Part shown: positions 3,133 through 21,687 of the stretch, one piece after another | Position numbering within the stretch: the first letter of the stretch is position 1 | Layout: each line of letters starts with the position of its first letter | NCBI GenBank assembly: GCA_027449865.1 | Contig: DAIDKV010000107.1 | Location: 1-41,971 of the forward strand | DNA from: Planctomycetales bacterium | Lineage (GTDB): Bacteria > Planctomycetota > Planctomycetia > Isosphaerales > Isosphaeraceae | DNA: 41,971 bases | Direction of reading: 5' to 3' | Notes under the pieces: generated by a model | Database searches by the model: none | The model's input: the letters and a program-made list of their open reading frames with translations, nothing else | Told to the model about the DNA's origin: nothing | Made by a program: the position numbers and the translations under genes

Positions 3133-3159
3133 ATGCGATGTTCAAAATGGTCATCGCAT
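3133..3159. repeat. 27-bp dispersed palindrome, copy 1
   Basis: Arms ATGCGATG (3133-3140) and CATCGCAT (3152-3159) flank the 11-bp centre TTCAAAATGGT. It fills the gap between two minus-strand genes, and its outer base forms part of the TGA stop of the upstream gene (3159-3161). The centre differs by two bases from the commonest form (ACCAAAATGGG). Confidence 0.9.
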
Positions 3160-4379
3160 CAAGATAGCCCCCCGACGAGCTGGGCCAGGGCTCCCATCAG
3201 CCCGACCTGCCGGGTGATCTTGTTCTTCTCGCTATCAATGAGCACGCCCTGCTGGGCCTGCGTGGCGTTCACGGCGAGCTGGGTCGCCTTGAGGATCTGG
3301 TCGGCGTTCGCCTGTGCGGCCTGGACGCGGATCTGCGTTTCGGCATCGCAGTTGGCACGGAGGTTCTGTCCGAGGTAGCCGGTCGTCATCGCCTGCAAGA
3401 GCGGCGAGTTCGACGAGAATCCCCGACCGGCCAGCTCGGTCTGAGCGTTGAGGATCGCCGCCTGCGTCCGCGAGTCGTTCCGGGCCAGGGCCGAGTTGAC
3501 CTGCTGCTGGATCTGCCGCTCGGTCAAGACGCCTGCCAGCGAGACGTACGGGAACGGGGCCTGATGCCCGGTCGCGTCCGCGAGCCCCGGCGTGTCGATG
3601 CCGTTATCCAGAAGGAACTGCTGCACGACGGGCCAGAGCGCGCCGTATTTATCCTCGGCGTACGTGATCCGCTCGGTCTGCCGGGCTGACTCGGCCTGCT
3701 CGTGCGTCTGGGCGACCGCCAGGCTAGCGTTCGCCTCGGTCGTGGCGGCAGCGAGCGACTGGTCGGCGGCGTACGTCCTGGCCCCGAAGTCTTGCTGGGC
3801 CGAGAAGACCTGGGCGTCCTTGTTCGCGGAGGCCGTGAAGACCTTGGCGTCGTAGTCGATCTGGGCCGCGCCAAGCGAAGCCTGGGCTTCCACCTGGGCC
3901 GCCGCAACGCGAGCATTCGCGTCCGTCTCGGCCTCGGCGATCCGGGTCGAGATGTCGATTCCGGCCGCCGCAACCCGGGCCGCCGCATCGATGCCGGCCA
4001 CCTGGACCTGGGCGATCGCATCGATCTGCGCGACCCCTGCCCTGGACTGGGCATCCGTGTCGGCCGAGTACATCGCTCCCTGGAGCTGCCTGTCCGAGCC
4101 GTACGTGGAGGCGTTGTAGCTAGTGGCCGCCGAGTAGGTCGATGCGGCGAAGTCTACCTGGCTCCCGTAGAGGCTGGCCTGTGCCGCATATGAGGCGCAG
4201 TTCTCGGCGGCGGACGCCTTGGCTGCCTCGCTCGCCGCGAGGACTGTCTGGATGTAGTTCGTCTCGTAGCTGATCTGGGTGGCGTCGAACGCCGGCAGCG
4301 CAATACTAACCGGCTGGGGGAGCAGGTTTATCCCGTTTGTCTGGGGGATGCCGGGGGCTGTCGCTTGGGTAGCTGGCAT
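3159..4379 (-). CDS. Ala-rich helical protein, candidate internal virion protein
   Basis: The product has 406 residues and is extremely Ala/Gln/Asp-rich. Residues about 60-240 are low-complexity helical sequence with quasi-repeats of the type AGIDAAARVAAAGID and AETDANARVAAAQVEAQ, in an 11-15-residue rhythm expected of a long coiled coil or helical bundle. A globular segment follows (YGALWPVVQQFLLDNGID), then a second helical region. No signal peptide or catalytic motif is visible. GCAGGAGGGCGCC precedes the ATG. Position beside two other non-enzymatic structural-type genes suggests an internal core or ejection protein; the sequence alone does not prove it. Confidence 0.7.
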   Translation of the reverse strand: MPATQATAPGIPQTNGINLLPQPVSIALPAFDATQISYETNYIQTVLAASEAAKASAAENCASYAAQASLYGSQVDFAASTYSAATSYNASTYGSDRQLQGAMYSADTDAQSRAGVAQIDAIAQVQVAGIDAAARVAAAGIDISTRIAEAETDANARVAAAQVEAQASLGAAQIDYDAKVFTASANKDAQVFSAQQDFGARTYAADQSLAAATTEANASLAVAQTHEQAESARQTERITYAEDKYGALWPVVQQFLLDNGIDTPGLADATGHQAPFPYVSLAGVLTERQIQQQVNSALARNDSRTQAAILNAQTELAGRGFSSNSPLLQAMTTGYLGQNLRANCDAETQIRVQAAQANADQILKATQLAVNATQAQQGVLIDSEKNKITRQVGLMGALAQLVGGLS

Positions 4380-5772: not shown

Positions 5773-6615
5773 TTACTCCAGCCAGACTGGCGGCTGATAG
5801 ATGTACTTGCCGCCGATCTGCAAGATGGGCCCGATTGCGGCGCCGACCGGGGCCGCCTCCGTCTCGGCGATATAAGGGATGTAGACCTGGACGATCTGCG
5901 GCGGGTTGTTCGGGTCTGAGAAGTCGGGAGGCGTGAGCGGGTCCGTCCGGAGTGCAACCACCCAGGGCTGACCCACGTTCCCGTTGTCGAGCCCGTTGTC
6001 CTGCACGTCGCCGAAGACGGCTGGCGTACTGTCGCCGCCGCCAAACGTCGCCTCCGTCCGGGCCAGGGCGTCCCGCACATATTGGTCGAGCGAGACGGGC
6101 ACACGCTTGCGGGCGTCGAGGATCATCGGCGGTCGGGCGAAGAACGCCCGGTCGAAGACGGCCGGGGCCGTGAATCGCGTCGGCGCGTCGAACGAGACGG
6201 ATGGGGCGGTCGCGTACTCCGAGGGGGCGGACCGCTCGCGGGGCCCGCCGTATCCCGATGGCGACGGCCGCCTCCCCTCGCTGTCGTCGGCGAAGCCGGG
6301 CGTCCGCCGGGCCCCGTCGTCCTGCGGCCTCGGCCTCGGCCTCGTGCCGGGGACCGCCGTCGCGGTCGAGGTCGAGTTCTTCGTGACGCCGAAGTTGTGC
6401 GTCGGCCCCTCGTTGACGATCGTGTCGCCGCCCTCCTGGATGATCCGCAAAGCGGGCTGGCCGGCCGGGACGCGGATCGTGAGCGTGTCGTTGATCTCCT
6501 TCGGCCCGCGCGCGGTGAACATCGCGTAAAGCTCCTGGGCGAGCGCGGTCGGCGTCTGCCATTGCTCGCGCAGGAGTCGGACCGGGGCGTTGATTCCGAT
6601 GAGCGGGTCCATCAT
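5773..6615 (-). CDS. Hypothetical tail-associated protein
   Basis: The product has 280 residues. An upstream extension of the frame exists, but the double ATG at 6615/6612 forms an ATGA overlap with the stop of the large nozzle gene and is the natural coupled start (MMDPLIGINAPVRLLREQW). The order is a helical N-terminus (ALAQELYAMFTARG), a beta segment (INDTLTIRVPAGQPALRI), a disordered Arg/Pro/Ser-rich linker (about residues 85-150), and a beta-rich C-terminus (VQVYIPYIAETEAAPVG; GGKYIYQPPVWLE). I recognise no family. Tight coupling to the nozzle gene argues for a partner in the tail. Confidence 0.65.
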   Translation of the reverse strand: MMDPLIGINAPVRLLREQWQTPTALAQELYAMFTARGPKEINDTLTIRVPAGQPALRIIQEGGDTIVNEGPTHNFGVTKNSTSTATAVPGTRPRPRPQDDGARRTPGFADDSEGRRPSPSGYGGPRERSAPSEYATAPSVSFDAPTRFTAPAVFDRAFFARPPMILDARKRVPVSLDQYVRDALARTEATFGGGDSTPAVFGDVQDNGLDNGNVGQPWVVALRTDPLTPPDFSDPNNPPQIVQVYIPYIAETEAAPVGAAIGPILQIGGKYIYQPPVWLE

Positions 6616-9600
6616 GGTTGCCTCACGCCGTTGACGGTGACGCTGTAAACACGCTGCGGGTCGCGGGCCTGAACGCCAGCGATCTCCACGGAGACGAACC
6701 GCTCGCCTGGGGCGGTCGGGTCGCGGTGGCCGGTGAGCCGATGGGCCGCATACCCGGACCGGGTCGTCATATCGACCACTACCTCGGGCTGGCCGTCGGT
6801 GACCGCCACGCCGTCCTGATCGATGGTCCGGGCCCACTTCTTCGGCTCGGTGTGGTGGTCGAAGTACATCCGCATGCTGACCGAGGACTGGTTGCGGAGC
6901 GGCTGGAAAACCAGCTCCACGTCGCGGCTGTTGTCTTCCTGTTCGTCCGCGAACCGGAACCACCCCGACTGCCACGTCCAGTTGATCCCGCCGATCTGGT
7001 AGACGCTGCTCGCGTCCGGGGTCGTCAGCCATGGGCGATCGAGCTTGAGCTGTGTCGAGGTGTTCGACACGATCTTCCGCTGCTGACCGAACCCTCGCCC
7101 CTCGGCGATCGAGACCGGGGCACCGGCGAGGTTGGCCGGGAACGGTGCCGACGAGTCGTTCAGGGTCAGCGGGCCGGCTGAGGTCACGTAGCCGCGAAGG
7201 CCATTCCCGTCCGGGACCACGTCGAGCGCCCCTTCGCCGAGGCAGAGGACCCGGCGAGCCTCCGACCCCGCGATCGAGCGACGGAAGCCGATCGTACCGA
7301 CTGTGCTGCTGGTGACGACGAACGGGTACTCCTCGATCCAGAACCGCTTGCGGCGATAGTCGTAGGCGATGGCGTGCCGGGGGAACTCACTCCCAGTCAT
7401 CGCGACGAACCACCGGATCGTGTCCTTCACCGGGTCGTGGGCCGCATGCCAGAGCCGCTGGTCCGCCTGCCAGTTGACTTGCAGTCCGCCGAGGCTCGAC
7501 TGCTGGAAGATGGTCTGGATCGGCGTACTGATCGGCTCGGCGTCCTGGCCGTCGAAGGCGTACAGGCCGATCTCGTCGAGGAGATAGGCCGTGTCCTCCA
7601 CCTGGACGTGGCATCGGTTGTTGACGCACCCCCGGCGGGTCGTGAGGAACACGAAGCCGTCGCGGGCCGGTTCCGACTGGAAGGTGAACTTGTAGAGGTG
7701 CCGCTTCTCCAGGACGTACAGGAAGCTCCCCTTGATCATCAGGCCGGTGATCTCGTCCGAGTCCTCCGGCAGCGAGATCGCGTTCCACGGCGGCCACGCT
7801 TCGGGCAAGGCCGGCTCGCTGTAGTAGACGAACTTCCGCTCGCCCGGGGCTGGCCGGATCGAGTAGCTCGTGAACGGCCCGGTGGCATCCGTCACCGTCT
7901 CGATCGTGGTGATGATCTGGCTGACCGGATCGACCGAGGCGATCTCGTAGGAGCTGGTCGCCCCCGCCATGTAGATCATCCGTCCGGCCATCGTCGGCAC
8001 CCAGTTCGTGCCGACCCCCTGGATCGAGTTGGTGCCGAGGAGCGGGTAGCAGTTCCCCTTCGTGTACGCCACGTCGCCGGCCGCGAAGATCCGGCCGAGG
8101 TGGGCCGCGATCACCGCCTTGTGGGCCGGCGGGACTCCGTAACGGTTGGCGTAGGGCGTCTCGGTCGAGGTGAAGAGCGGGAGGGCTTGGCCGGCTGCAA
8201 GCTCCGGATCGGTCTTGGTCGAGGTGAAGGCCGGCGAGGTCAGATCCGTGGTGTCGATGTCCACGTAGAGCGTCTCGGCGTTGCCGTCCAGGTTGCGGAG
8301 GATCTGGCGACGGGCCACCTTGGGCTCGGTCGGCGTCGGCACCGAGCCGTACAGGACCGTGCTGATCCCCATGACCCACCGGCCACCGCCGAGCCACCGG
8401 AGGCTGCCGGTCGAGTATGGTATCGAGAAGTTGTCGGCGTCGATGACCGTAATCGGCCAGATGCCGTTGATCGGCAGCCCCCGCACGCCCTCGATGATCA
8501 CGGAGTCGCCGGCCGAGAGTCCATGTCGCGGCGAGGTGATCTGACCGCCCTGGCTGATCGCGGTGATGATCCCGTCGCTGCCAAAGTCCACCATGTTCGA
8601 GACGGGGCTGAGGTTCGAGACGTTGCCGTAGATGTCGATGAACCGGACGTACGCCACGCGGGGGCCGGTGATCATGCCGAGGCCCACGCCACCGAACTCG
8701 ATCGCCGTTGCCGGGGGCTGGACCCCGGCCGTGTCGGCGCTGCCGGCCAGGCCGTCCCAACGCTGCATCGGGTCGATCCCGTTGGCGACGAGGATCAGGC
8801 CGCCGGGCGTCTCCGCGAACGAGAATGGGAACTCGCCCGAGACTCCAGGAACGAGGACCGTACTCAACCCCGACTGGGCCCCGCCCGGGACGCCGCCGCC
8901 GGCCGGCAGCGAGATGGAGGCGTCGGCCCTGGTCGCGATCGAGAAGCCCGAGGACACCTCGGTCGCCGAGACGATCGAGACCGCCGAGACGGTGTAGACG
9001 AAGCCGCTCGACGCCGCGCCGTAGAGGAAGGTGTTCGACCCCTGGGCGGTCGCCAGATTCAGGGCGGTCGCCGCCGAGACCGAGATGTCGCGGCCAGACC
9101 ACACCGAGGGGCCGAAGGTGATCGTCGTGGCGGCAGCCGATGAGGTGTCGCGGCTCTCGGAGGCCGACGATCCGAGGATGATGCCGGATGCGGCTGAGGC
9201 CGAGAGCATCCGGTTCGCGATCGTGTCCGCAAGGGAGGCCAGGTTCAGGCTGGTCGAGGCCGTGACGACGTAGTTCCGGATCGCCCCCGGGGATGCTGAT
9301 GCTCCGAGCGTGATCCCGGTGGACGCCAGGAGCAGATAGGTGGCTGGCCCCTTGCCGACCGCCGCCACCGTGCTGGCCGGCTTCGCACCGAGGACGAAGG
9401 CCGTCGAGGCGATGACCGTATACGTGTTGCCGCGATAGCCCGAGACCGAGAAGCCGAGCTTCGTTGTGGCCTGGGCGTACTTGGACGAGTTGGCCACGAA
9501 GCTGTTGGGCGAGACAACCAGCGACGTGGTTGCCTGCACCTCGAAGTCGCCGCCGTTGAGCGGAATGGCCGCGAAGGCGATGGAGGATGCGGCCGAGATG

Positions 9601-9731
9601 TGCTTGACCGGGTTCGTCGCCCCGACTGTCCCCGCGAAGGCGAGCGTCGTCGAGGCGACGACCGGGATGCCGTTGTCCTTCGCCGTGGTACGGACGACTT
9701 CCACAACGATCTGGGTGACGCGAAGGCTCAT
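6612..9731 (-). CDS. Tail nozzle-like beta-propeller protein with N-terminal 20-residue repeats
   Basis: The product has 1039 residues. It opens with MSLRVTQIVVEVVRTTA, a start shared with the 611-residue protein further upstream. Residues about 26-275 are around 11 copies of a 20-22-residue unit of the type AASxIxFGSSASESRDxxxx. The rest looks like a podovirus tail nozzle/stabilisation propeller: VPGGAQSGL..LVPG, RVAYVRFIDIYGNVSNLSP, IAAHLGRIFAAGD, KFVYYSEPALPEAWPPWN, FLYVLEKRHLYKFTF, then RRGCVNNRCHVQVEDTAYLL and HAIAYDYRRKRFWIEEYPF. In T7 and P22 the equivalent protein closes the tail channel below the adaptor. It overlaps the upstream gene by one base (TGATG) and the next by four. A short N-terminal segment usual for this family is instead encoded at 14360-14554. 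The assignment rests on motif style and is fairly firm. Confidence 0.7.
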   Translation of the reverse strand: MSLRVTQIVVEVVRTTAKDNGIPVVASTTLAFAGTVGATNPVKHISAASSIAFAAIPLNGGDFEVQATTSLVVSPNSFVANSSKYAQATTKLGFSVSGYRGNTYTVIASTAFVLGAKPASTVAAVGKGPATYLLLASTGITLGASASPGAIRNYVVTASTSLNLASLADTIANRMLSASAASGIILGSSASESRDTSSAAATTITFGPSVWSGRDISVSAATALNLATAQGSNTFLYGAASSGFVYTVSAVSIVSATEVSSGFSIATRADASISLPAGGGVPGGAQSGLSTVLVPGVSGEFPFSFAETPGGLILVANGIDPMQRWDGLAGSADTAGVQPPATAIEFGGVGLGMITGPRVAYVRFIDIYGNVSNLSPVSNMVDFGSDGIITAISQGGQITSPRHGLSAGDSVIIEGVRGLPINGIWPITVIDADNFSIPYSTGSLRWLGGGRWVMGISTVLYGSVPTPTEPKVARRQILRNLDGNAETLYVDIDTTDLTSPAFTSTKTDPELAAGQALPLFTSTETPYANRYGVPPAHKAVIAAHLGRIFAAGDVAYTKGNCYPLLGTNSIQGVGTNWVPTMAGRMIYMAGATSSYEIASVDPVSQIITTIETVTDATGPFTSYSIRPAPGERKFVYYSEPALPEAWPPWNAISLPEDSDEITGLMIKGSFLYVLEKRHLYKFTFQSEPARDGFVFLTTRRGCVNNRCHVQVEDTAYLLDEIGLYAFDGQDAEPISTPIQTIFQQSSLGGLQVNWQADQRLWHAAHDPVKDTIRWFVAMTGSEFPRHAIAYDYRRKRFWIEEYPFVVTSSTVGTIGFRRSIAGSEARRVLCLGEGALDVVPDGNGLRGYVTSAGPLTLNDSSAPFPANLAGAPVSIAEGRGFGQQRKIVSNTSTQLKLDRPWLTTPDASSVYQIGGINWTWQSGWFRFADEQEDNSRDVELVFQPLRNQSSVSMRMYFDHHTEPKKWARTIDQDGVAVTDGQPEVVVDMTTRSGYAAHRLTGHRDPTAPGERFVSVEIAGVQARDPQRVYSVTVNGVRQP

Positions 9732-10867
9732 CAGCTCACCAGCTTAACGCCGGCCTCCATCCCCTCCACGTCGCTCCGGGAGAAGTACGAGCTAGTGGCG
9801 GGGTTGTTCTCCCACACGCTACGGACCGGGGCGTACGTGGCGTTGAGGTTGCCGGATGGGCTTCCGTCGTAGTAGACGCCGCCGATCCGGAGGCTGTTGT
9901 TCATCGTCCGCGTCGTCTCCCCCGCATCGACCCGGTCGAAGCTGGAAACGTGGACCGCGAATATCTGCTTCGGGGTGTCGGGCATCTTCCCGAGCGCGTA
10001 GGAGTCTCGGTTGCCGACGCCCGAGGTCGAGACGTACGTCGTGTCGCCGTCGAACGTCGCCTCGCTCACCTCAGCGTAGTTCGCCACGCCGCCCTGATTG
10101 GGAGTGAACTGCGTCGAAGAGCCGGCCCCGGCCGGCTCGATGCAGTTGACCGAGCAGGCCCCGAGGTAGACCGTGTTCACGCCGGTCGTCGCATCGATGA
10201 CGTACAGGTCGTCGATGCAGAAGATGGTCGTGTTCGCGGGGAATGTGCTGGCGCTGCCGAATGGCGAGCCGATCGCGACGCTGGCGTACGCCGACGCCCC
10301 GGAAGCCGCCGTGACTGTGGTTCCCACGGAATGGTTGACCACCTGGGAGCCGTTGCCATCCAGGTAATCGACGCGAATCTCGATCGACCCGGTGCCCGAT
10401 GTGACTGTCCCCCAGACCACCTTCATCTCGACGTAGTACCACTGGCCGGCGACGAGGGGGCTCGGGCCCGTCCAGTTGTCGCTGATCGCGCCGGATGCGT
10501 TCCTCATCCGGAGATAGCCGCCGCCATCGATGGTGAGAGCAGCGTCCGCGTCGTGGTATCCAGAGCCGCTATTATCTCCAAGGAAGACGATGATATTGTT
10601 GATCGCGTTGCTGCCCCCGGTGCCGCCCGTCGGCATGGCCTCGATCTTGAGCGCAAACCCAACAATCATCGTTGTCGTGTTCGCGATCACCGGGGACGCG
10701 ATGTATCCATAGAGGCTGCTGGCATTCGTCGTGAACGAGAGGCCGCCTCCCCCGGTGCGGGCCGCCGCCGAGGAGATCGCGTACTGCGTGAGGTACGAGT
10801 GCGGCCACTTGAGCGAGATGCTGCCCGTCGCGTAGAAGTCGAAGCTGTCCACGTAGACGACGCCCAT
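9731..10867 (-). CDS. LamG/jelly-roll-like tail protein
   Basis: The product has 378 residues and is beta-rich and Gly/Ser/Thr-rich. Residues 1-225 (VDSFDFYAT; MIVGFALKIEA; GQWYYVEMKVVWG; GSIEIRVDYLDGNG; FCIDDLYVIDATTG) follow the order seen in concanavalin A-like jelly-roll domains of phage tail proteins. The C-terminal part (PNQGGVANYAEVSE..FDGDTTYV) and the end FSRSDVEGMEAGVKLV are common in uncharacterised tail proteins. The likely role is surface or receptor binding, or fibre attachment, inferred from fold. The stop overlaps the nozzle start by one base. A strong hairpin lies just before its ribosome binding site. Confidence 0.7.
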   Translation of the reverse strand: MGVVYVDSFDFYATGSISLKWPHSYLTQYAISSAAARTGGGGLSFTTNASSLYGYIASPVIANTTTMIVGFALKIEAMPTGGTGGSNAINNIIVFLGDNSGSGYHDADAALTIDGGGYLRMRNASGAISDNWTGPSPLVAGQWYYVEMKVVWGTVTSGTGSIEIRVDYLDGNGSQVVNHSVGTTVTAASGASAYASVAIGSPFGSASTFPANTTIFCIDDLYVIDATTGVNTVYLGACSVNCIEPAGAGSSTQFTPNQGGVANYAEVSEATFDGDTTYVSTSGVGNRDSYALGKMPDTPKQIFAVHVSSFDRVDAGETTRTMNNSLRIGGVYYDGSPSGNLNATYAPVRSVWENNPATSSYFSRSDVEGMEAGVKLVS

Positions 10868-10889
10868 GGCGAACCTCCGCTTGCGGAAC

Positions 10890-10923
10890 GGGGCGAGAGT
10901 CGGCCGAAGCCGACTCCCGCCCC
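10890..10923 (-). promoter_or_regulatory. 15-bp hairpin in the leader of the jelly-roll gene
   Basis: GGGGCGAGAGTCGGC (10890-10904) pairs with GCCGACTCCCGCCCC (10909-10923) with a single mismatch. On the minus-strand transcript the loop is UUCG, an extra-stable tetraloop. A second small stem, TCCGC-AA-GCGGA, follows and overlaps the AGCGGAGG ribosome binding site. No T-tract follows, so attenuation, processing or translational control is likelier than full termination. Confidence 0.5.
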
Positions 10924-10943
10924 GCGAATCCCGGCCCCATGCA

Positions 10944-11555
10944 TCAGGACGAGGTGGCCGACACCGTGTACGTGACCTTCAGGGTGTCGCCGTTGTTCAC
11001 GGTCTGCGTGCCGCCGCTGAACGCGGCCGTCGCGAAGAGGTTGCCGGCCGTCCCATTGAGGGTGTTGTCCGAGGTGAGGAAGATCCCCCGGATCGTCGCC
11101 CCGCTCGTCGGCGTCATGGCGAAGTTGACCGTGGTCGTGTTGGTCACGCCCTGGTTGGCCGCAGCCGCCGCCGTCCACTGGGGCCGGTTGGTCCCGGAAT
11201 ACTGGATGTTCTCGACCCAGCCGGTGTGGCTGGTCATCGTGTCGGCCGCAGCGAACCCGGTATAGTTCGCGTTGTCCACGAGGCCGAGATACCAGTTGGC
11301 GGTCTGGGCCGTCCCGCGCAGGTAGACGTTGAGGATGTCGTTGAGGGCGTTGTTGGTCACGCCGTTCTCGGCGGTGTCCTCCCACTTGAGGTTCCCGTCC
11401 TTGTCGAAGCACTCGACGACGAAGTAGCCGCCGGCCTGGATGCCGCCCGTCAGACCGCTCAGGTCCAGCTGGATGCCGGGGACGTCGTAGCTGCCATCGG
11501 CGCGCTCGACGAGCGCATCTGCGTGATCGCAGAAGGCGAAGCCGTTGCCAGTCAT
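10944..11555 (-). CDS. Conserved phage tail/virion protein
   Basis: The product has 203 residues. The central order KWEDTAENGVTNNALNDILN, TAQTANWYLGLVDN, FAAADTMTSHTGWVE, RPQWTAA, then FLTSDNTLNGTAGNLFATAAF and a final GDTLKVTYTVSA matches a widespread family of uncharacterised phage structural proteins that I recognise by pattern, not by name. It is beta-rich with no signal peptide. AGGAGCGACCCAAC precedes the ATG. It sits between two tail-type genes; a fibre- or tip-associated role is likely but unproven. Confidence 0.7.
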   Translation of the reverse strand: MTGNGFAFCDHADALVERADGSYDVPGIQLDLSGLTGGIQAGGYFVVECFDKDGNLKWEDTAENGVTNNALNDILNVYLRGTAQTANWYLGLVDNANYTGFAAADTMTSHTGWVENIQYSGTNRPQWTAAAAANQGVTNTTTVNFAMTPTSGATIRGIFLTSDNTLNGTAGNLFATAAFSGGTQTVNNGDTLKVTYTVSATSS

Positions 11556-11595
11556 GTTGGGTCGCTCCTGAATGGGCCCTAGTTATGGGCCAGGT

Positions 11596-13431
11596 TCAGA
11601 TTCGAGGGCTACGCCCCTGGACGAGCTTGCCGGCCCCGAGCTGGGCCAGCACATAGTTCGACTCCGGCCGGTCGTAGCTGAACACCGAGATCACCGCACC
11701 GTTCGGGTCGCCGCCGGCCACCACCTCGAAGTAATCGACGCGGGCCCACGGCTGTCCCCCGCTCGTGTAGCGGTACGCCACCCTGTATCTACCCAACGGC
11801 AGCCGGAGATCGAGAAAGAGCGGGAGCGAAAAGATCGAGTTCGCCAGGTCGATCGCCGGAATCGAGAGCGTCAGGATCGCCGGAGCGCCGGAGTCGCCGT
11901 AGACCTTCGCGGTCGGCGGTGCGTCGGGCGTCACGATCCGGCCCTGGTAGCCGATCGTCCGGATCGTCAGGTTGACGATCTGCCCCTGCTGGTACTGGCC
12001 GAGGTAGTCGATGTCGTGCGAGGCCATGGGATTGCCTCCGGCTGCGCTCACGTAGAGGCGGGACATTGGGAGCCAGGCCCCGAGCGGGAACGCCGCGATC
12101 TGGCCGGTGTTGTACTCCAGCTCCCCGGTGTGGAGGGCGATGTTGTTCGAGGCGAAGGCGTTCAGGATGCGGATGCCCTCGATCGAGACGCCCATCGTCA
12201 GCTCTGTCAGGGCGGTCGCGTTGACGAACCGCATGCCGACACTGGAGTCGGCGAACGCAATTGAGCTGGCGGCGGACGGGAAAACATCGCGGACCCCGGT
12301 CGCCTGGCCGCCCGAGAGCGAGACCACTGACTCGGCCGACGAGAAGGCGTCCCGGTGGCTGACGCCGGACGGCGAGAGGGTGATCGTGCTGACTGCGTCC
12401 GGGAAGAGGTCGCGGACCTGGGACGACGCGGAGCCCAGCACAAAAGCCGAGGCAGCCCCGATCGGCAGGTCCCTTGCTCCCGGCGTGCTGGACGAAAGGA
12501 TCAGGTGATTGGCGGCGCTCCTGGGCATATCCCGCACGGCGGTCGCTGTCGAGCTGAACGTAATCAGCTCCGAGGCGAACCCGCGATTCTTGCCGTCGCC
12601 CGATCCTTGATAGGAGAAGCCGACCGTCGTGACGGCGGTTGCCGCCGCGTCTCTCGTCTCGGAGCCCGAGTCGGCGAGGGCGATCTGCGAGGCCGCGAGC
12701 CCGGTCACGTCTCGCTGCTCGGAGGCCGAAACGGCGAGGGCGAACGTGCTCGTCGCCGCCGTGAAGATGTCACGGACCTGGCCGGCCGTCGCGCCGAACG
12801 TGATCGTGGTAGCCGCCGCCGCGAACGCGCCCACGAACTCCGAGGATGTCGCGGAGAATGCCAGGGCCGAGACCGCCGAACCGTAATGGTCGGCCGGCCC
12901 GAGCGACGGGCACGCCAGAGAGAACGACGAGGCGGCGGACGGGAAGACGTCGCGACCCTCGGAGGACGCCGACCCGAGCGTCACCACACTGGATGCGGTC
13001 GCCACGCCGACCTTCGAGCCGCCGGCCGCCGGGCCGACCGTGATCGTCGAGGTGGCGGATGGGTAGATGTCGCGGACGGAAGATGTGCTGCCGAACCACG
13101 TAATCGTCGAGTTGGCCGACACCGAGGCGCCACGGAACTCGGCGGCCGAGTATCCGAGCTGGAAGAATGATGACGCCGAGGGGAAGGCGTCCTTGGGCGC
13201 GGAGCCCGAGCAGGCGAAGCTGATCTGACTGGAGGCGGACTGGAAGGCGTCCTTGGGCGCGGAGCCCGAGTAGACGAAGTGGATCGCGGACGCGGCGCCG
13301 ATCGTCGTGTCGCGGCTCTCGGACCCGACATACCCGAACGTGATCAGGTTCGACGCCGAGAGGTTGAACGCGACCTGGGCGGCGGACGTACGGAGGACTT
13401 CGACCGTGACCTGCGATGTCCGGAGTGCCAT
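11596..13431 (-). CDS. Tail protein made of about 21 tandem 20-residue repeats
   Basis: The product has 611 residues. The start MALRTSQVTVEVLRTSA parallels the nozzle protein. Residues about 24-440 divide into about 21 units, nearly all exactly 20 residues (one is 21, the first 22). The loose consensus is A-A-S-x-I-x-F-x-x-S-x-S-x-x-R-D-x-F-P-S, for example ASSVVTLGSASSEGRDVFPS and AASAFVLGSASSQVRDLFPD. The alternating hydrophobic strand followed by a small-residue turn suggests a beta-solenoid or beta-strand stack, probably a tail fibre or spike shaft. Residues 441-611 form a separate beta-rich head (FSLPLFLDLRLPLGRYRVAYRY; ARVDYFEVVAGGDP). No cysteine-rich or enzymatic motif is visible. Confidence 0.75.
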   Translation of the reverse strand: MALRTSQVTVEVLRTSAAQVAFNLSASNLITFGYVGSESRDTTIGAASAIHFVYSGSAPKDAFQSASSQISFACSGSAPKDAFPSASSFFQLGYSAAEFRGASVSANSTITWFGSTSSVRDIYPSATSTITVGPAAGGSKVGVATASSVVTLGSASSEGRDVFPSAASSFSLACPSLGPADHYGSAVSALAFSATSSEFVGAFAAAATTITFGATAGQVRDIFTAATSTFALAVSASEQRDVTGLAASQIALADSGSETRDAAATAVTTVGFSYQGSGDGKNRGFASELITFSSTATAVRDMPRSAANHLILSSSTPGARDLPIGAASAFVLGSASSQVRDLFPDAVSTITLSPSGVSHRDAFSSAESVVSLSGGQATGVRDVFPSAASSIAFADSSVGMRFVNATALTELTMGVSIEGIRILNAFASNNIALHTGELEYNTGQIAAFPLGAWLPMSRLYVSAAGGNPMASHDIDYLGQYQQGQIVNLTIRTIGYQGRIVTPDAPPTAKVYGDSGAPAILTLSIPAIDLANSIFSLPLFLDLRLPLGRYRVAYRYTSGGQPWARVDYFEVVAGGDPNGAVISVFSYDRPESNYVLAQLGAGKLVQGRSPRI

Positions 13432-13454: not shown

Positions 13455-13760
13455 TCAGGTCACGATGAAGCTCTGCTCGTACGCCACTGGAGTCCCGAGC
13501 ACGAGGGCCTTGATGAACACCTTGTAGGAGGTGCCCACCTCGTAGCCGTTGCCGGGGTCAATACTGATCTGGAAGGCGTACAGGCCCGTCTGGGTCGCAT
13601 CCAGAACGGTCGCGATCCCGGTCCCGTACTGCATCAGCCCGGACGGGCCGTACACGCGGAACGTCGGGAGCGAGTCGGCGGCGACAGGCGACTCCTGCGA
13701 GTTCTTAACGATGAGCGATCCATTCAGGATCGCGTTAAGGTTCACGAATCCAATAAACAC
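13455..13760 (-). CDS. Small beta-rich virion protein with probable GTG start
   Basis: The product has 101 residues counted from the GTG at 13760. An ATG at 13766 directly abuts the AAGGAG ribosome binding site with no spacer; the GTG two codons later has the normal six-base spacing, so I prefer it. Sequence features are FRVYGPSGLMQYGTGI, TQTGLYAFQISIDPGNGYEVG and TSYKVFIKALVLGTPVAYEQSFIV, a single immunoglobulin- or fibronectin-like beta sandwich of the kind found in phage tail proteins. It lies between the plus-strand moron and the repeat protein. The function is unknown. Confidence 0.65.
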   Translation of the reverse strand: MFIGFVNLNAILNGSLIVKNSQESPVAADSLPTFRVYGPSGLMQYGTGIATVLDATQTGLYAFQISIDPGNGYEVGTSYKVFIKALVLGTPVAYEQSFIVT

Positions 13761-13871
13761 TTGCATCTCCTTGTGTGGGTGGTCCGCCGAGGAGCTTTAC
13801 GCCACGGGGCCCTGAGAAATCTGGCCCGCGAGTTCGGGGGTTGCTCGTGGCGACGTGAAGCTCGGGGTTGC

Positions 13872-14933: not shown

Positions 14934-16289
14934 TTAGTCCGTATAACCGAGGTGAATCGGGTAGTCGCGGAGCCGCCTACGCAGCGGCCTCCGGATACCC
15001 ACGGCTCGACCCTGGAAGCTCCGCGAGTCCGCGGCCTTCGCGCGGTTCAGCTCTTCGAGGTACTGGTTGCGGGCGGATGGCTTGTCCTTGAGGGTCCGGA
15101 CCATGCCGAGGTGCATCTCGACGCACCGGAGGTAGGCGTTGAGCATCGCGCCTTCCTCGATGTCCACGCGATCCGAGATCGTGTAGGCGAGGCCGGTCAA
15201 GGTCTGGGTCGGCGCGTCGCAGGTCATCACGCTCGTCGCCGAGATCCAGGAGGTGATCAGCGACTCGAACGCGGCCGGGTTCTTCCCGATCTCGCTCGTC
15301 GGCAGGCAGAGCCCGGTGTTGGCGAGCCGGAGCACGCTGCCGACCATGTCGGGCGCGAAGGCCGTGCTCGTCCCGGTGATCACGTTCGAGCCGGCGGTTG
15401 TCGCGATCGTCCCGCCGGCCGCCAGGGCGGGCGTCGATCCGCCCGTCGTCCGGTAGATCCGGAGCGGCCTCGCCCTCCGCTTGTAGATGAAGTCGATCGT
15501 CTTCGACTCGTACGGCCAGGGGAACACCTTGAGCGTGAGCCGGCCGGGGTACTGCTTGTCCCCGGTGATCGTGTAATACTGCGGCGTCCCGGCGGCGAAG
15601 ACGTATCGGTTCTCGTACAGCCACTCGCGAGGGTGGGTGTAGTCCATGCCCCCGAAGTTCCGCTGGTAGAGGGCCTGGTCCTGGGCGATGAAGTCCTCGG
15701 GCAGGAGGTACGTGTCGCGGTAGAGCGTGAACGGCGTGCCGGCCGGCAGGTCGATGTCGAACGTGACCATCGGGTCGAGGGTCAGCACGGTGGCGCTCTT
15801 CATCTCGGCCACCCTGGCGTTCACCTCGCCAACCCGCAGGTATGCACCGTCGCCGGCCCACGCCGGCCAGGTCGTCCCCGAGAGCGTCACCTGGAATGGA
15901 TAGGTCCCAGATGACGACTGGTACTGAATCGAGGCGTTCGTGACCGTGACGCCCGGGTCCTCGTCGGCGCCGACATCCGAGTACCCGGTGCCTTCGACCC
16001 AGTACCCTCCGTCGGTTCCGTAGGCGTACCCCTCGATCGGGGTCGTGGTTGGGGAGGGCGTCGGCGTCGGGCTCGGCGAGGTGATGACGGGGATGGCCGC
16101 CCCGGCGAAGGCACCGCTCGTGATGATCCGGCCGTGCGTGTAGTAGCTCGACCAGTTGTGGGCGTTGATCAGCTCGCGGTACGCTTCGAGCGCCGCCCGC
16201 TTGCAGTCGCGGAGGGCAACGTCGCTCGGGTTGCCGCCCAGGTAGTCGAAGCCATGCTCGACGACATCCTCGAAGGTTGTGAAGCTCAT
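14934..16289 (-). CDS. Head-to-tail adaptor (tail tubular A-like) protein
   Basis: The product has 451 residues. The N-terminus (VVEHGFDYLGG..VALRDCKRAALEAYRELINAHNW) is the helical start of portal-binding adaptor proteins of podoviruses. A disordered SPSPTPTPSPTTTP linker (about 70-85) precedes a beta-rich region with DTYLLPEDFIAQDQALYQRN and KVFPWPYESKTIDFIYKRRARPL, also typical. The C-terminal helix (LNAYLRCVEMHLGMVRTLKD) ends in a basic tail. In the T7/P22 model a ring of adaptors joins portal to nozzle. CAGGAGTCGCAGCC precedes the ATG. It is larger than most adaptors because of the inserted linker and a TTAGSNVITGTSTAFAPDMV beta module. Confidence 0.7.
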   Translation of the reverse strand: MSFTTFEDVVEHGFDYLGGNPSDVALRDCKRAALEAYRELINAHNWSSYYTHGRIITSGAFAGAAIPVITSPSPTPTPSPTTTPIEGYAYGTDGGYWVEGTGYSDVGADEDPGVTVTNASIQYQSSSGTYPFQVTLSGTTWPAWAGDGAYLRVGEVNARVAEMKSATVLTLDPMVTFDIDLPAGTPFTLYRDTYLLPEDFIAQDQALYQRNFGGMDYTHPREWLYENRYVFAAGTPQYYTITGDKQYPGRLTLKVFPWPYESKTIDFIYKRRARPLRIYRTTGGSTPALAAGGTIATTAGSNVITGTSTAFAPDMVGSVLRLANTGLCLPTSEIGKNPAAFESLITSWISATSVMTCDAPTQTLTGLAYTISDRVDIEEGAMLNAYLRCVEMHLGMVRTLKDKPSARNQYLEELNRAKAADSRSFQGRAVGIRRPLRRRLRDYPIHLGYTD

Positions 16290-19836: not shown

Positions 19837-21687
19837 TTACCACAGCTTGACCGATCCGCCGTGGCCGGACTCCGTCCTTTTCTTGTGCGCCGCCCGCTTC
19901 CTTTTCATCTCCAGGTAGTCGGTCGCGTAGTTGCCCGACCGCTTGATCGGCCGGGGCTTGACCCACCGGAGCTTCGCCATCATCAGGTAGCGGAGGCAGT
20001 CCACCGCGTGGTCGTTGAGCTTGATCGGTTCGTCGGTGACGACGCCGTTCGGGCTCTTGCGGTACGAGTACCGTTCCATCTCCTTGAGGAAGTTCGGGAC
20101 CCGCTCCCACATGACCGCCAGCTCGGAGCGGCCGTCCACGATGTGCAGGGCGCCGTGGACGGCCTCGATGCCGCCCTTCACGTCGTCGCTCGACCACTGG
20201 AAGCGGTGCTCGCCCCGCACGAACTTGAAGCCGAGGGCCTTGAGCGCGTCGGAGTATTGCTGTTCGTGCGTCTTGCCCGAGCCGATCTCGGTGATCCGGC
20301 CGGCCCGGTGGTCGATGATCCCGAACTCGACCGGTCTATGTCCGATCTTGCCGACTAGCTTCTCGGCGAAGATCCGGGCGTTGCAGCTCTTGATGTACAG
20401 CTCGTCGAAGATGATCTTCCGACCGCCGAACGCCCGGTCGGTCGGCGGGGGCACGGCGCAGAAGAGCACGGCGCAGACCTGGCGGCCCGGGTCGATGGCG
20501 CAGTAGACCGTCCAGTCCTCGGGGATCGGGAAGCTCGGGATGCCGTGGCACCCCTTCGGCATGAACTCCGAGTAGACGCGCGAGCCGAACAGGGCGAACT
20601 GGCCCTCGATGCGGACCTTGTACTCGTCGGGCTTGTCCGCCCATTTCCGCTTCATCGCGTCCTTGGCGTGGGTGGCGATGAACGGGTTCGTGTCGATGCC
20701 GAACTGGAACACCTCGATCGACGCCGGGCCCGGGTCGTCCCCGCGCTCGATCGCGGCCTGGCGAGACTCAGCCTCCTCGATCGCCCGCGAGTACAGGTCG
20801 AAGAGCTGGACGGTGCCCGACTGCGGGGTGGCCGACCACATGAACTTGCCGGACTTCACCTTGCCGGTCTTGTGGTTCTTCTGGCGGCGGTCGGCGAGCC
20901 GGGCCGACATCTCGTGATACCAGCCCTCCCGCTCGATTTCCTCGTCGAACGCCACGCCGTCCACGTCCACGCCCTGCGGCCACTCGCCGCCGGAGGAGAA
21001 GAACCACAGCTCCCAGCCGTTCTTCAGCCGGATCGTCTTGGGGACCTCGTCCTTCTTGTTCTCCCACGAGATCGACTGGATGAACCGCTTCGGGATCAGC
21101 GGGGGCGCCTTGACCTTCTGCTCCTCCAGCTCGAAATCCTCGTCCGGCCGGAAGGTGCGCCACTGGCCCGTCGCCGGGTCCTTCACGATGTAGAAGGCCC
21201 CGGGCTTGAAGAGTTTCCGGTAGAAGACCTTCGCGCACTTCGCGAGATCGATGGCGACGAGGATGAAGATCCCGTCCTCCTTCGGATACTTGTCGTGCGG
21301 GTCCTGGCCCGTCACGGCCCTCGAAATCTCGACCATGGTCGTGGTCGTCTTGCCGCCTCGATTGCCGCCCAGGGCGATCCGCTCGTCCGCGTTCGACGAG
21401 AAGAACCGCTCCTGTTCGGGCATCGGCACGAAGAGGCGAAGGGCCTCCATCTGGCGGGCGGCGATCTCGGCGAGGACGCCCTTGAACTCGTCCGCCTCCA
21501 GTTCGCTCAGCCGGCCGGGGTCGGCCGGGGATTCCGGGATGACCGGCTCGAAGTCCGGGATCTCGATGGGTTCCTCGGGCTCGGCGCGGAACGAGGGCGG
21601 CGGGGCCAGGGCCGGCACCTCGCCGGCCACCGTCCGCTTACCCCTCCGCTTCCGGCCCAGGATCGGGTCCGGCGGGGGCGGCAGCAT
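19837..21687 (-). CDS. terL: Terminase large subunit
   Basis: The product has 616 residues. The ATPase half has Walker A GGNRGGKT (107-114), Walker B VDGVAFDEE (242-250) and the coupling motif SATPQSGT near 285. The nuclease half has D399 in YCAIDPGRQ, D459 in GIIDHRAG and D559/D563 in LNDHAVDCLRYLMM, the acidic residues expected of the RNase H-like fold. It is the DNA-packaging motor and headful or site-specific cutter, acting at the portal. The N-terminal 75 residues are Pro-rich and disordered. It starts inside the end of the small-subunit gene (50-base overlap). The packaging mode cannot be read from the sequence alone. Confidence 0.9.
   Translation of the reverse strand: MLPPPPDPILGRKRRGKRTVAGEVPALAPPPSFRAEPEEPIEIPDFEPVIPESPADPGRLSELEADEFKGVLAEIAARQMEALRLFVPMPEQERFFSSNADERIALGGNRGGKTTTTMVEISRAVTGQDPHDKYPKEDGIFILVAIDLAKCAKVFYRKLFKPGAFYIVKDPATGQWRTFRPDEDFELEEQKVKAPPLIPKRFIQSISWENKKDEVPKTIRLKNGWELWFFSSGGEWPQGVDVDGVAFDEEIEREGWYHEMSARLADRRQKNHKTGKVKSGKFMWSATPQSGTVQLFDLYSRAIEEAESRQAAIERGDDPGPASIEVFQFGIDTNPFIATHAKDAMKRKWADKPDEYKVRIEGQFALFGSRVYSEFMPKGCHGIPSFPIPEDWTVYCAIDPGRQVCAVLFCAVPPPTDRAFGGRKIIFDELYIKSCNARIFAEKLVGKIGHRPVEFGIIDHRAGRITEIGSGKTHEQQYSDALKALGFKFVRGEHRFQWSSDDVKGGIEAVHGALHIVDGRSELAVMWERVPNFLKEMERYSYRKSPNGVVTDEPIKLNDHAVDCLRYLMMAKLRWVKPRPIKRSGNYATDYLEMKRKRAAHKKRTESGHGGSVKLW

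What the first reader, a model, noticed from the sequence alone, without database searches (positions are those of the whole stretch)
6612..13431. Shared 20-residue repeat in two tail proteins
The protein at 11596-13431 is about 21 units of nearly exactly 20 residues (A-A-S-x-I-x-F-x-x-S-x-S-x-x-R-D-x-F-P-S), and the N-terminal third of the 1039-residue nozzle-like protein has around 11 related, less regular units. Both open with the same LRxxQ(V/I)xVEV(V/L)RT motif. The strict period suggests a regular beta-solenoid or stacked shaft not matched to a named family here, and two paralogous uses in one tail.
Basis: seen in the sequence. Interest (0 to 1): 0.7.

Follow-up and report, generated by a model that had tools for sequence, protein, structure and literature searches.

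The report
Shared beta-repeat arms on phage tail
A phage of a planctomycete bacterium carries the same 20-residue repeat array, with the same short leader peptide, on two different tail proteins (the nozzle and a small docking protein), and related phages carry sugar-binding-type domains in the same places, so the arrays are probably interchangeable outward-pointing arms that help the phage meet its host.

Summary
The 611-aa protein (11596-13431, -) has about 20 units of almost exactly 20 residues (period-20 autocorrelation z=14.3). The first ~260 residues of the 1039-aa protein (6612-9731, -) carry about 10-11 looser units of the same type: a profile made only from the first protein's units scores 34.9 bits there, against 5.0 for the best of 200 shuffles. 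Both start with the same leader (9/18 identical). The 1039-aa protein is a T7 gp12/P22 gp10-type nozzle from residue 288 on. The 611-aa protein ends in an Ig-like domain that relatives encode alone (~140 aa). Most of 30 related nozzles start after the repeats. Repeat-linked nozzles form one clade, in three layouts: fused repeats, LamG+repeats fused, or a separate repeat gene upstream. In relatives the Ig-like domain carries LamG, Ig or propeller payloads instead. I read the repeats as an exchangeable beta-rich arm of the adsorption apparatus, used twice in one tail. No Pfam, PHROG, NCBIfam or PDB family matches the window's units. The fold is unresolved (AlphaFold: beta, pLDDT about 60); a beta-solenoid is plausible, not shown. 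The leader motif is widespread in phage tail-type proteins.

The parts
11596..13431 (-). Protein A, 611 aa: leader + 20-residue repeats + Ig-like domain
   Evidence: ORF; orthologue L033 40% identical over the whole length
13357..13431 (-). Leader of A (residues 1-25), RTSQVTVEVLRT motif
   Evidence: motif widespread
12094..13356 (-). About 20 units of 20 residues plus a partial one (A residues 26-446)
11599..12036 (-). Ig-like docking domain and C-terminal strand segment (A residues 466-611), a stand-alone ~140-aa gene in relatives
6612..9731 (-). Protein B, 1039 aa: leader + repeats + nozzle
   Evidence: (phrog_3287, E 4e-9)
9657..9731 (-). Leader of B (residues 1-25)
9012..9656 (-). About 10-11 looser repeat units (B residues 26-240; the last one less certain)
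6615..8870 (-). Nozzle body (B residues 288-1039)
   Evidence: VIA-align Z 20.7 to Pa223, 17.6 to P22 gp10
13455..13766 (-). 103-aa tandem paralogue of A's Ig-like domain, no repeats
   Evidence: hhalign probability 98.6, E 8e-16
14934..16289 (-). Putative adaptor (451 aa), upstream in the same order in relatives
   Evidence: gene order in L003, L008; function inferred from position only
10944..11555 (-). 203-aa virion-type protein, conserved neighbour
   Evidence: phrog_8123 E 2e-21; relatives beside tail genes of cultured podoviruses
9731..10867 (-). 378-aa protein, conserved neighbour
   Evidence: phrog_2448 E 1e-29, weak polysaccharide-lyase-fold hit below cut-off

Best explanation
A and B are two tail proteins of a short-tailed phage, each built as leader - beta-repeat arm - anchor. 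The anchor of B is the nozzle, which by analogy with T7 is a hexamer below the adaptor. The anchor of A is a small Ig-like domain that most likely docks onto the tail near the adaptor and nozzle. The repeat array is an accessory arm projecting from the anchor, with the leader at its free end. It takes the place that LamG, Ig or propeller payloads take in relatives and serves adsorption, as a stiff spacer and/or low-affinity multivalent contact surface. The array was probably linked to the nozzle gene first, then copied with its leader onto A's docking domain in the ancestor of the window phage, L033 and L035. Shown: the shared repeat and leader, the nozzle fold in a confident model, the docking domain's stand-alone existence and payload exchange, and the clade distribution. 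Inferred: docking site, outward orientation, adsorption role, direction of copying. Not resolved: the exact fold of the units.
For: Shared repeat. Nozzle fold. A's C-terminal domain exists alone in many related loci and carries other N-terminal payloads elsewhere: Big_3_5 Ig plus Laminin_G_3 in L056 (1079 aa), FG-GAP propeller in L037 (1013 aa), Laminin_G_3 in L058. Repeats next to the nozzle are fused (window, L033, L035), fused behind a LamG-like domain (L037, L049) or a separate upstream gene (L034, L048); these seven form one clade in the nozzle tree (support 0.95), while repeats on A occur only in window, L033 and L035 (support 1.0). Copy number differs between orthologues (611, 629 and 429 aa). 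In T7 fibres dock between adaptor and nozzle (PMC6702177).
Against: No experiment. The repeats were not modelled confidently, so orientation and stiffness are guesses. No binding site or enzymatic residue is evident in the units. Clade distribution also fits loss from A in L034, L048, L037 and L049. Ser/Ala-rich repeats could be passive.
Confidence: 0.5

Rival explanations
1. Passive spacer or structural collar: the arrays set distance or rigidity (a sleeve or collar around adaptor and nozzle) and bind no host molecule; copy number tunes length.
For: Strict spacing with diverged sequence; only two fixed large hydrophobics and an R-D pair per unit; copy number differs between A orthologues.
Against: Swapped in relatives with lectin- and propeller-type domains; absent from most relatives, so not a needed structural part.
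Confidence: 0.25
2. The leader (RVTQxxxEVL) is the docking element and the Ig-like domain or repeats are the exposed part, so the arms point the other way.
For: The leader is the part most widely shared with unrelated phage tail-type proteins and is present on both A and B.
Against: Relatives keep the Ig-like domain without leader or repeats; the nozzle body of B must be the anchor, with the leader at the far end from it.
Confidence: 0.15
3. Chance similarity: two low-complexity Ala/Ser/Thr-rich stretches that look alike by composition, not by shared descent.
For: Both regions are rich in A, S, T, G; mean unit identity between proteins is low (0.13-0.26).
Against: 34.9 bits against 5.0 for the best of 200 shuffles; in register after the same 25-residue leader; the arrangement is kept in L033 and L035.
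Confidence: 0.05

Closest known systems
Podovirus tail nozzle (T7 gp12, P22 gp10, SU10 gp17, Pa223)
   Same: Fold of B residues 288-1037 (Z 17.6-20.7) and position after the adaptor-like gene
   Different: B has about 287 residues before the matched region, mostly repeats; most homologous nozzles lack them
BppU-type baseplate adaptors (TP901-1 BppU N-terminal domain, PF10651)
   Same: Works like it, if right: a small Ig-like sandwich that carries exchangeable receptor-binding parts; TP901-1 and 80alpha baseplate chains are among fold matches (Z 8.2-8.4)
   Different: No sequence match; domain is C-terminal here, N-terminal in BppU; the fold match is tied with many unrelated Ig folds
[quoted passage not shown]
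   Same: L035's repeats reach 24.3 bits against a cut-off of 24.2; Ser-rich units with two alternating hydrophobics
   Different: The window's units give no match; the reversed L035 sequence still scores 13.7 bits; no membrane part or Toastrack cap seen
RV(T/S)QxxxEVL tandem motif of phage tail-type proteins
   Same: The leader of A and B is one copy of this motif; L034's separate repeat gene has three in tandem; L083 has the motif together with AASSxLxL units
   Different: Elsewhere usually repeated every 17-19 residues and attached to other domains; single here

Membership tests
T7 gp12/P22 gp10-type nozzle (protein B) | Nozzle fold with central beta-propeller and platform | tested here: met
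   Confident model; VIA-align Z 20.7 over 361 residues to Pa223, 17.6 to P22 gp10
T7 gp12/P22 gp10-type nozzle (protein B) | Hexamer below the adaptor, closing the DNA channel | not testable with these tools
   No particle data
BppU_N (protein A, residues 466-611) | Match to PF10651 or to a BppU profile | tested here: not met
   No match in 15 phage records or at A in the own genome; hhalign probability 0.1
BppU_N (protein A, residues 466-611) | Ig-like sandwich fold as in TP901-1 BppU | tested here: inconclusive
   Z 8.2, 105 residues, rmsd 3.6, tied with unrelated Ig folds
DUF2807 / Toastrack (repeat units) | HMM match over the units of the window proteins | tested here: not met
   No match to A or B; only orthologue L035 is at the cut-off
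[quoted passage not shown]
   Beta predicted at low confidence; handedness and topology not readable
Trimeric phage fibre shaft | Interwound homotrimer with repeating strands | not testable with these tools
   Only monomer prediction was available

The most novel reading that the evidence does not exclude
The 20-residue units form a beta-repeat fold not yet described, and one phage tail uses it on two different anchors whose leaders and units evolve in concert within a genome (in L035 the A and B leaders share 14/18 residues, against 8-9/18 for the A-B pairs of the other two genomes and 5-10/18 between genomes), implying a shared partner that both arms must fit.
Probability: 0.2. Interest if true: 0.65.

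Novelty: new variant of a known kind. Interest (0 to 1): 0.45.

Why it matters
No tail module of this repeat type was found in the 50,697 phage genome records searched, and the phage belongs to the planctomycetes, whose phages are little known (I found no paper on such a short-tailed phage in the library searched). It gives a clear case of a tail arm that is fused, split and copied between two anchors of the same particle. It also identifies a small Ig-like docking domain that can be used to find the host-contact payloads of this phage group, and names a lysogen with a deposited genome (Singulisphaera sp. GP187) in which the idea can be tested.

Tried and rejected
Curated families: no match for the units; A's weak DUF7185 hit (E 0.05) and L034's weak Glyco_hydro_68 hit (E 0.03) were taken as chance. 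tblastn of A, B, the L037 repeats, L034's repeat protein, a stand-alone core and a nozzle against 50,697 phage records: no match (BLAST's low-complexity filter was on, so a weak repeat match could be hidden). Repeat profile A6 against 392 planctomycete genomes: only the window's own genome plus two weak hits that overlap longer open frames, taken as chance. One alignment (A5) held hand-typed rows with letters joined wrongly and was not used. PDB profile search with the repeats gave only antibody light chains and OspA at E 0.07 and above, taken as composition. PDB fold searches did not test the repeat arrays, because the Ig-like domain and the nozzle filled the lists. BppU membership rejected by sequence. 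LamG C-terminal repeats of L041 and L063 look similar by eye but do not match the A-unit profile and are not counted. Literature searches for such tail repeats or planctomycete podoviruses found nothing relevant.

Full report
1. Check. Protein A (11596-13431, minus strand, 611 aa) is periodic at 20 residues with z=14.3 over residues 1-430 and has harmonics at 40, 60 and 80; its last 180 residues are not periodic. Unit starts run 26, 46... 346, then 366 (21 residues), 387, 407, with a partial unit at 427: about 20 full units. Per position over 19 units: Ala at 1 (19/19), large hydrophobic at 5 and 7 (19/19), basic at 15 (16/19), Asp at 16 (13/19). Protein B (6612-9731, minus, 1039 aa) has the same period more weakly (z=4.6 in residues 1-300). 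A profile built only from A's units scores 34.9 bits on B's first 300 residues, against 5.0 bits for the best of 200 shuffles. Leaders are 9/18 identical and the first unit begins at residue 26 in both. At DNA level the units are diverged (mean 46%) and no tandem array is called.

2. Setting. The window is one whole contig of an 8.48 Mb genome. A genome of the same family carries a related prophage at a place that matches the fetched record of Singulisphaera sp. GP187, so the host is inferred to be an Isosphaeraceae planctomycete. The contig encodes a terminase (19837-21687), primase, ParB-like protein and helicase and is a phage. A virus contig, L003/L033, has the same order: adaptor-like protein, 118-aa protein, A, 204-aa protein, 377-aa protein, nozzle.

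3. Anatomy of B. AlphaFold with 22 homologues gives a confident model for most of residues 301-1000. Residues 288-1037 match podovirus nozzles: Z 20.7 (361 residues, rmsd 3.8) to Pa223, 18.9 to SU10, 17.6 to P22 gp10, and T7 gp12 by Foldseek. Before residue 288 the model has about one strand of 9-14 residues per unit, mostly at pLDDT 55-79. In T7 the nozzle hexamer sits below the adaptor and fibres dock between the two (PMC6702177).

4. Anatomy of A. AlphaFold with 17 homologues gives a confident beta sandwich for residues 481-570 and low confidence (about 60) for the repeats, which are predicted as strands. The sandwich is Ig-like: best rows are macroglobulin domains (Z 9.1), with phage baseplate proteins of NF5, 80alpha and TP901-1 at Z 8.2-8.5, tied with many unrelated Ig folds. 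The gene upstream (13455-13766, 103 aa) is a paralogue of this domain (hhalign probability 98.6). A profile of BppU N-termini does not match it (probability 0.1), so it is not filed as BppU.

5. Comparative evidence. Of 30 nozzles compared, most begin at B residue ~301, without repeats. A tree of the nozzle bodies groups the repeat-linked ones (support 0.95): window, L033 and L035 with repeats fused; L037 and L049 with a LamG-like domain plus repeats fused (1412 and 1356 aa); L034 and L048 (Singulisphaera prophage) with a separate repeat gene (303 and 394 aa) upstream. The repeats of L033's and L049's nozzles and of L034 are divergent and fall below the strict A-unit profile cut; they were recognised by unit spacing or by the wider profile. 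A's C-terminal domain is usually a ~140-aa protein on its own; it is fused to repeats in the window, L033 and L035, and to Ig/LamG, propeller or other long N-terminal parts in L056, L037 and L058. So both anchors accept different N-terminal payloads, and the repeat array is one of them. The simplest history is nozzle-linked repeats first, then a copy with its leader on A; this is inference from presence and absence.

6. The leader. RV(T/S)QxxxEVL occurs, often in tandem every 17-19 residues, in many other phage tail-type proteins, in L034's repeat gene three times, and in L083 next to AASSxLxL units. It is a general phage element, not a private marker of this tail. In L035 the leaders of A and B are 14/18 identical, more than any other pair, which hints at concerted change but is one case.

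7. Fold of the units. No Pfam, PHROG, NCBIfam or PDB sequence family matches the window's units. One orthologue (L035) just reaches the DUF2807 cut-off (24.3 bits vs 24.2), but the reversed sequence still gets 13.7 bits and the window proteins none. [quoted passage not shown] So a beta-helix is plausible and unproven; an oligomeric shaft is equally open. The PDB fold searches did not test the repeats by themselves, because other domains filled the lists.

8. Reading. Leader, beta-repeat arm, anchor: two such proteins in one short tail, on the nozzle and on a small Ig-like docking protein, in a place where relatives carry carbohydrate-binding-type domains. The most likely role is in adsorption, as spacer and/or weak multivalent contact. 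Docking site, orientation and function are inferences and need particles.

Noticed in passing
L082:2386-3426, L083:1-1749, L084-L102: RV(T/S)QxxxEVL repeats every 17-19 residues in many different phage tail-type proteins, at N-terminus, middle or C-terminus, sometimes beside other short repeats such as FIxSxTxVYxPTL (L091, L093, L101). No curated family seems to cover them.
   Followed up: partly
L037:3167-7270 and L037:103-3144: Two very long proteins (1367 and 1013 aa) end in the same Ig-like docking domain as A; the second has an FG-GAP propeller, the first has no Pfam assignment and looks enzyme-like by eye. Possible host-surface enzymes of this phage group.
   Followed up: partly
L004:6579-7580: A LamG-type protein upstream of a repeat-free nozzle carries another repeat, TTSGGLALGGxxT..., a different module in the same place.
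   Followed up: no
window 3159-4379 (-): 406-aa protein with AQxxAGIDxxARV-type repeats, probably coiled-coil; a related, longer array is in the Singulisphaera prophage (L008:16693-17535).
   Followed up: no
window 6612-9731, B residues 400-450; L004:2518-5118: Segment resembling the E1_FCCH domain of ubiquitin-activating enzymes (E 3e-4, below cut-off) inside the nozzle; repeated three times in a neighbouring protein of L004. Likely a common phage beta-barrel insert.
   Followed up: no
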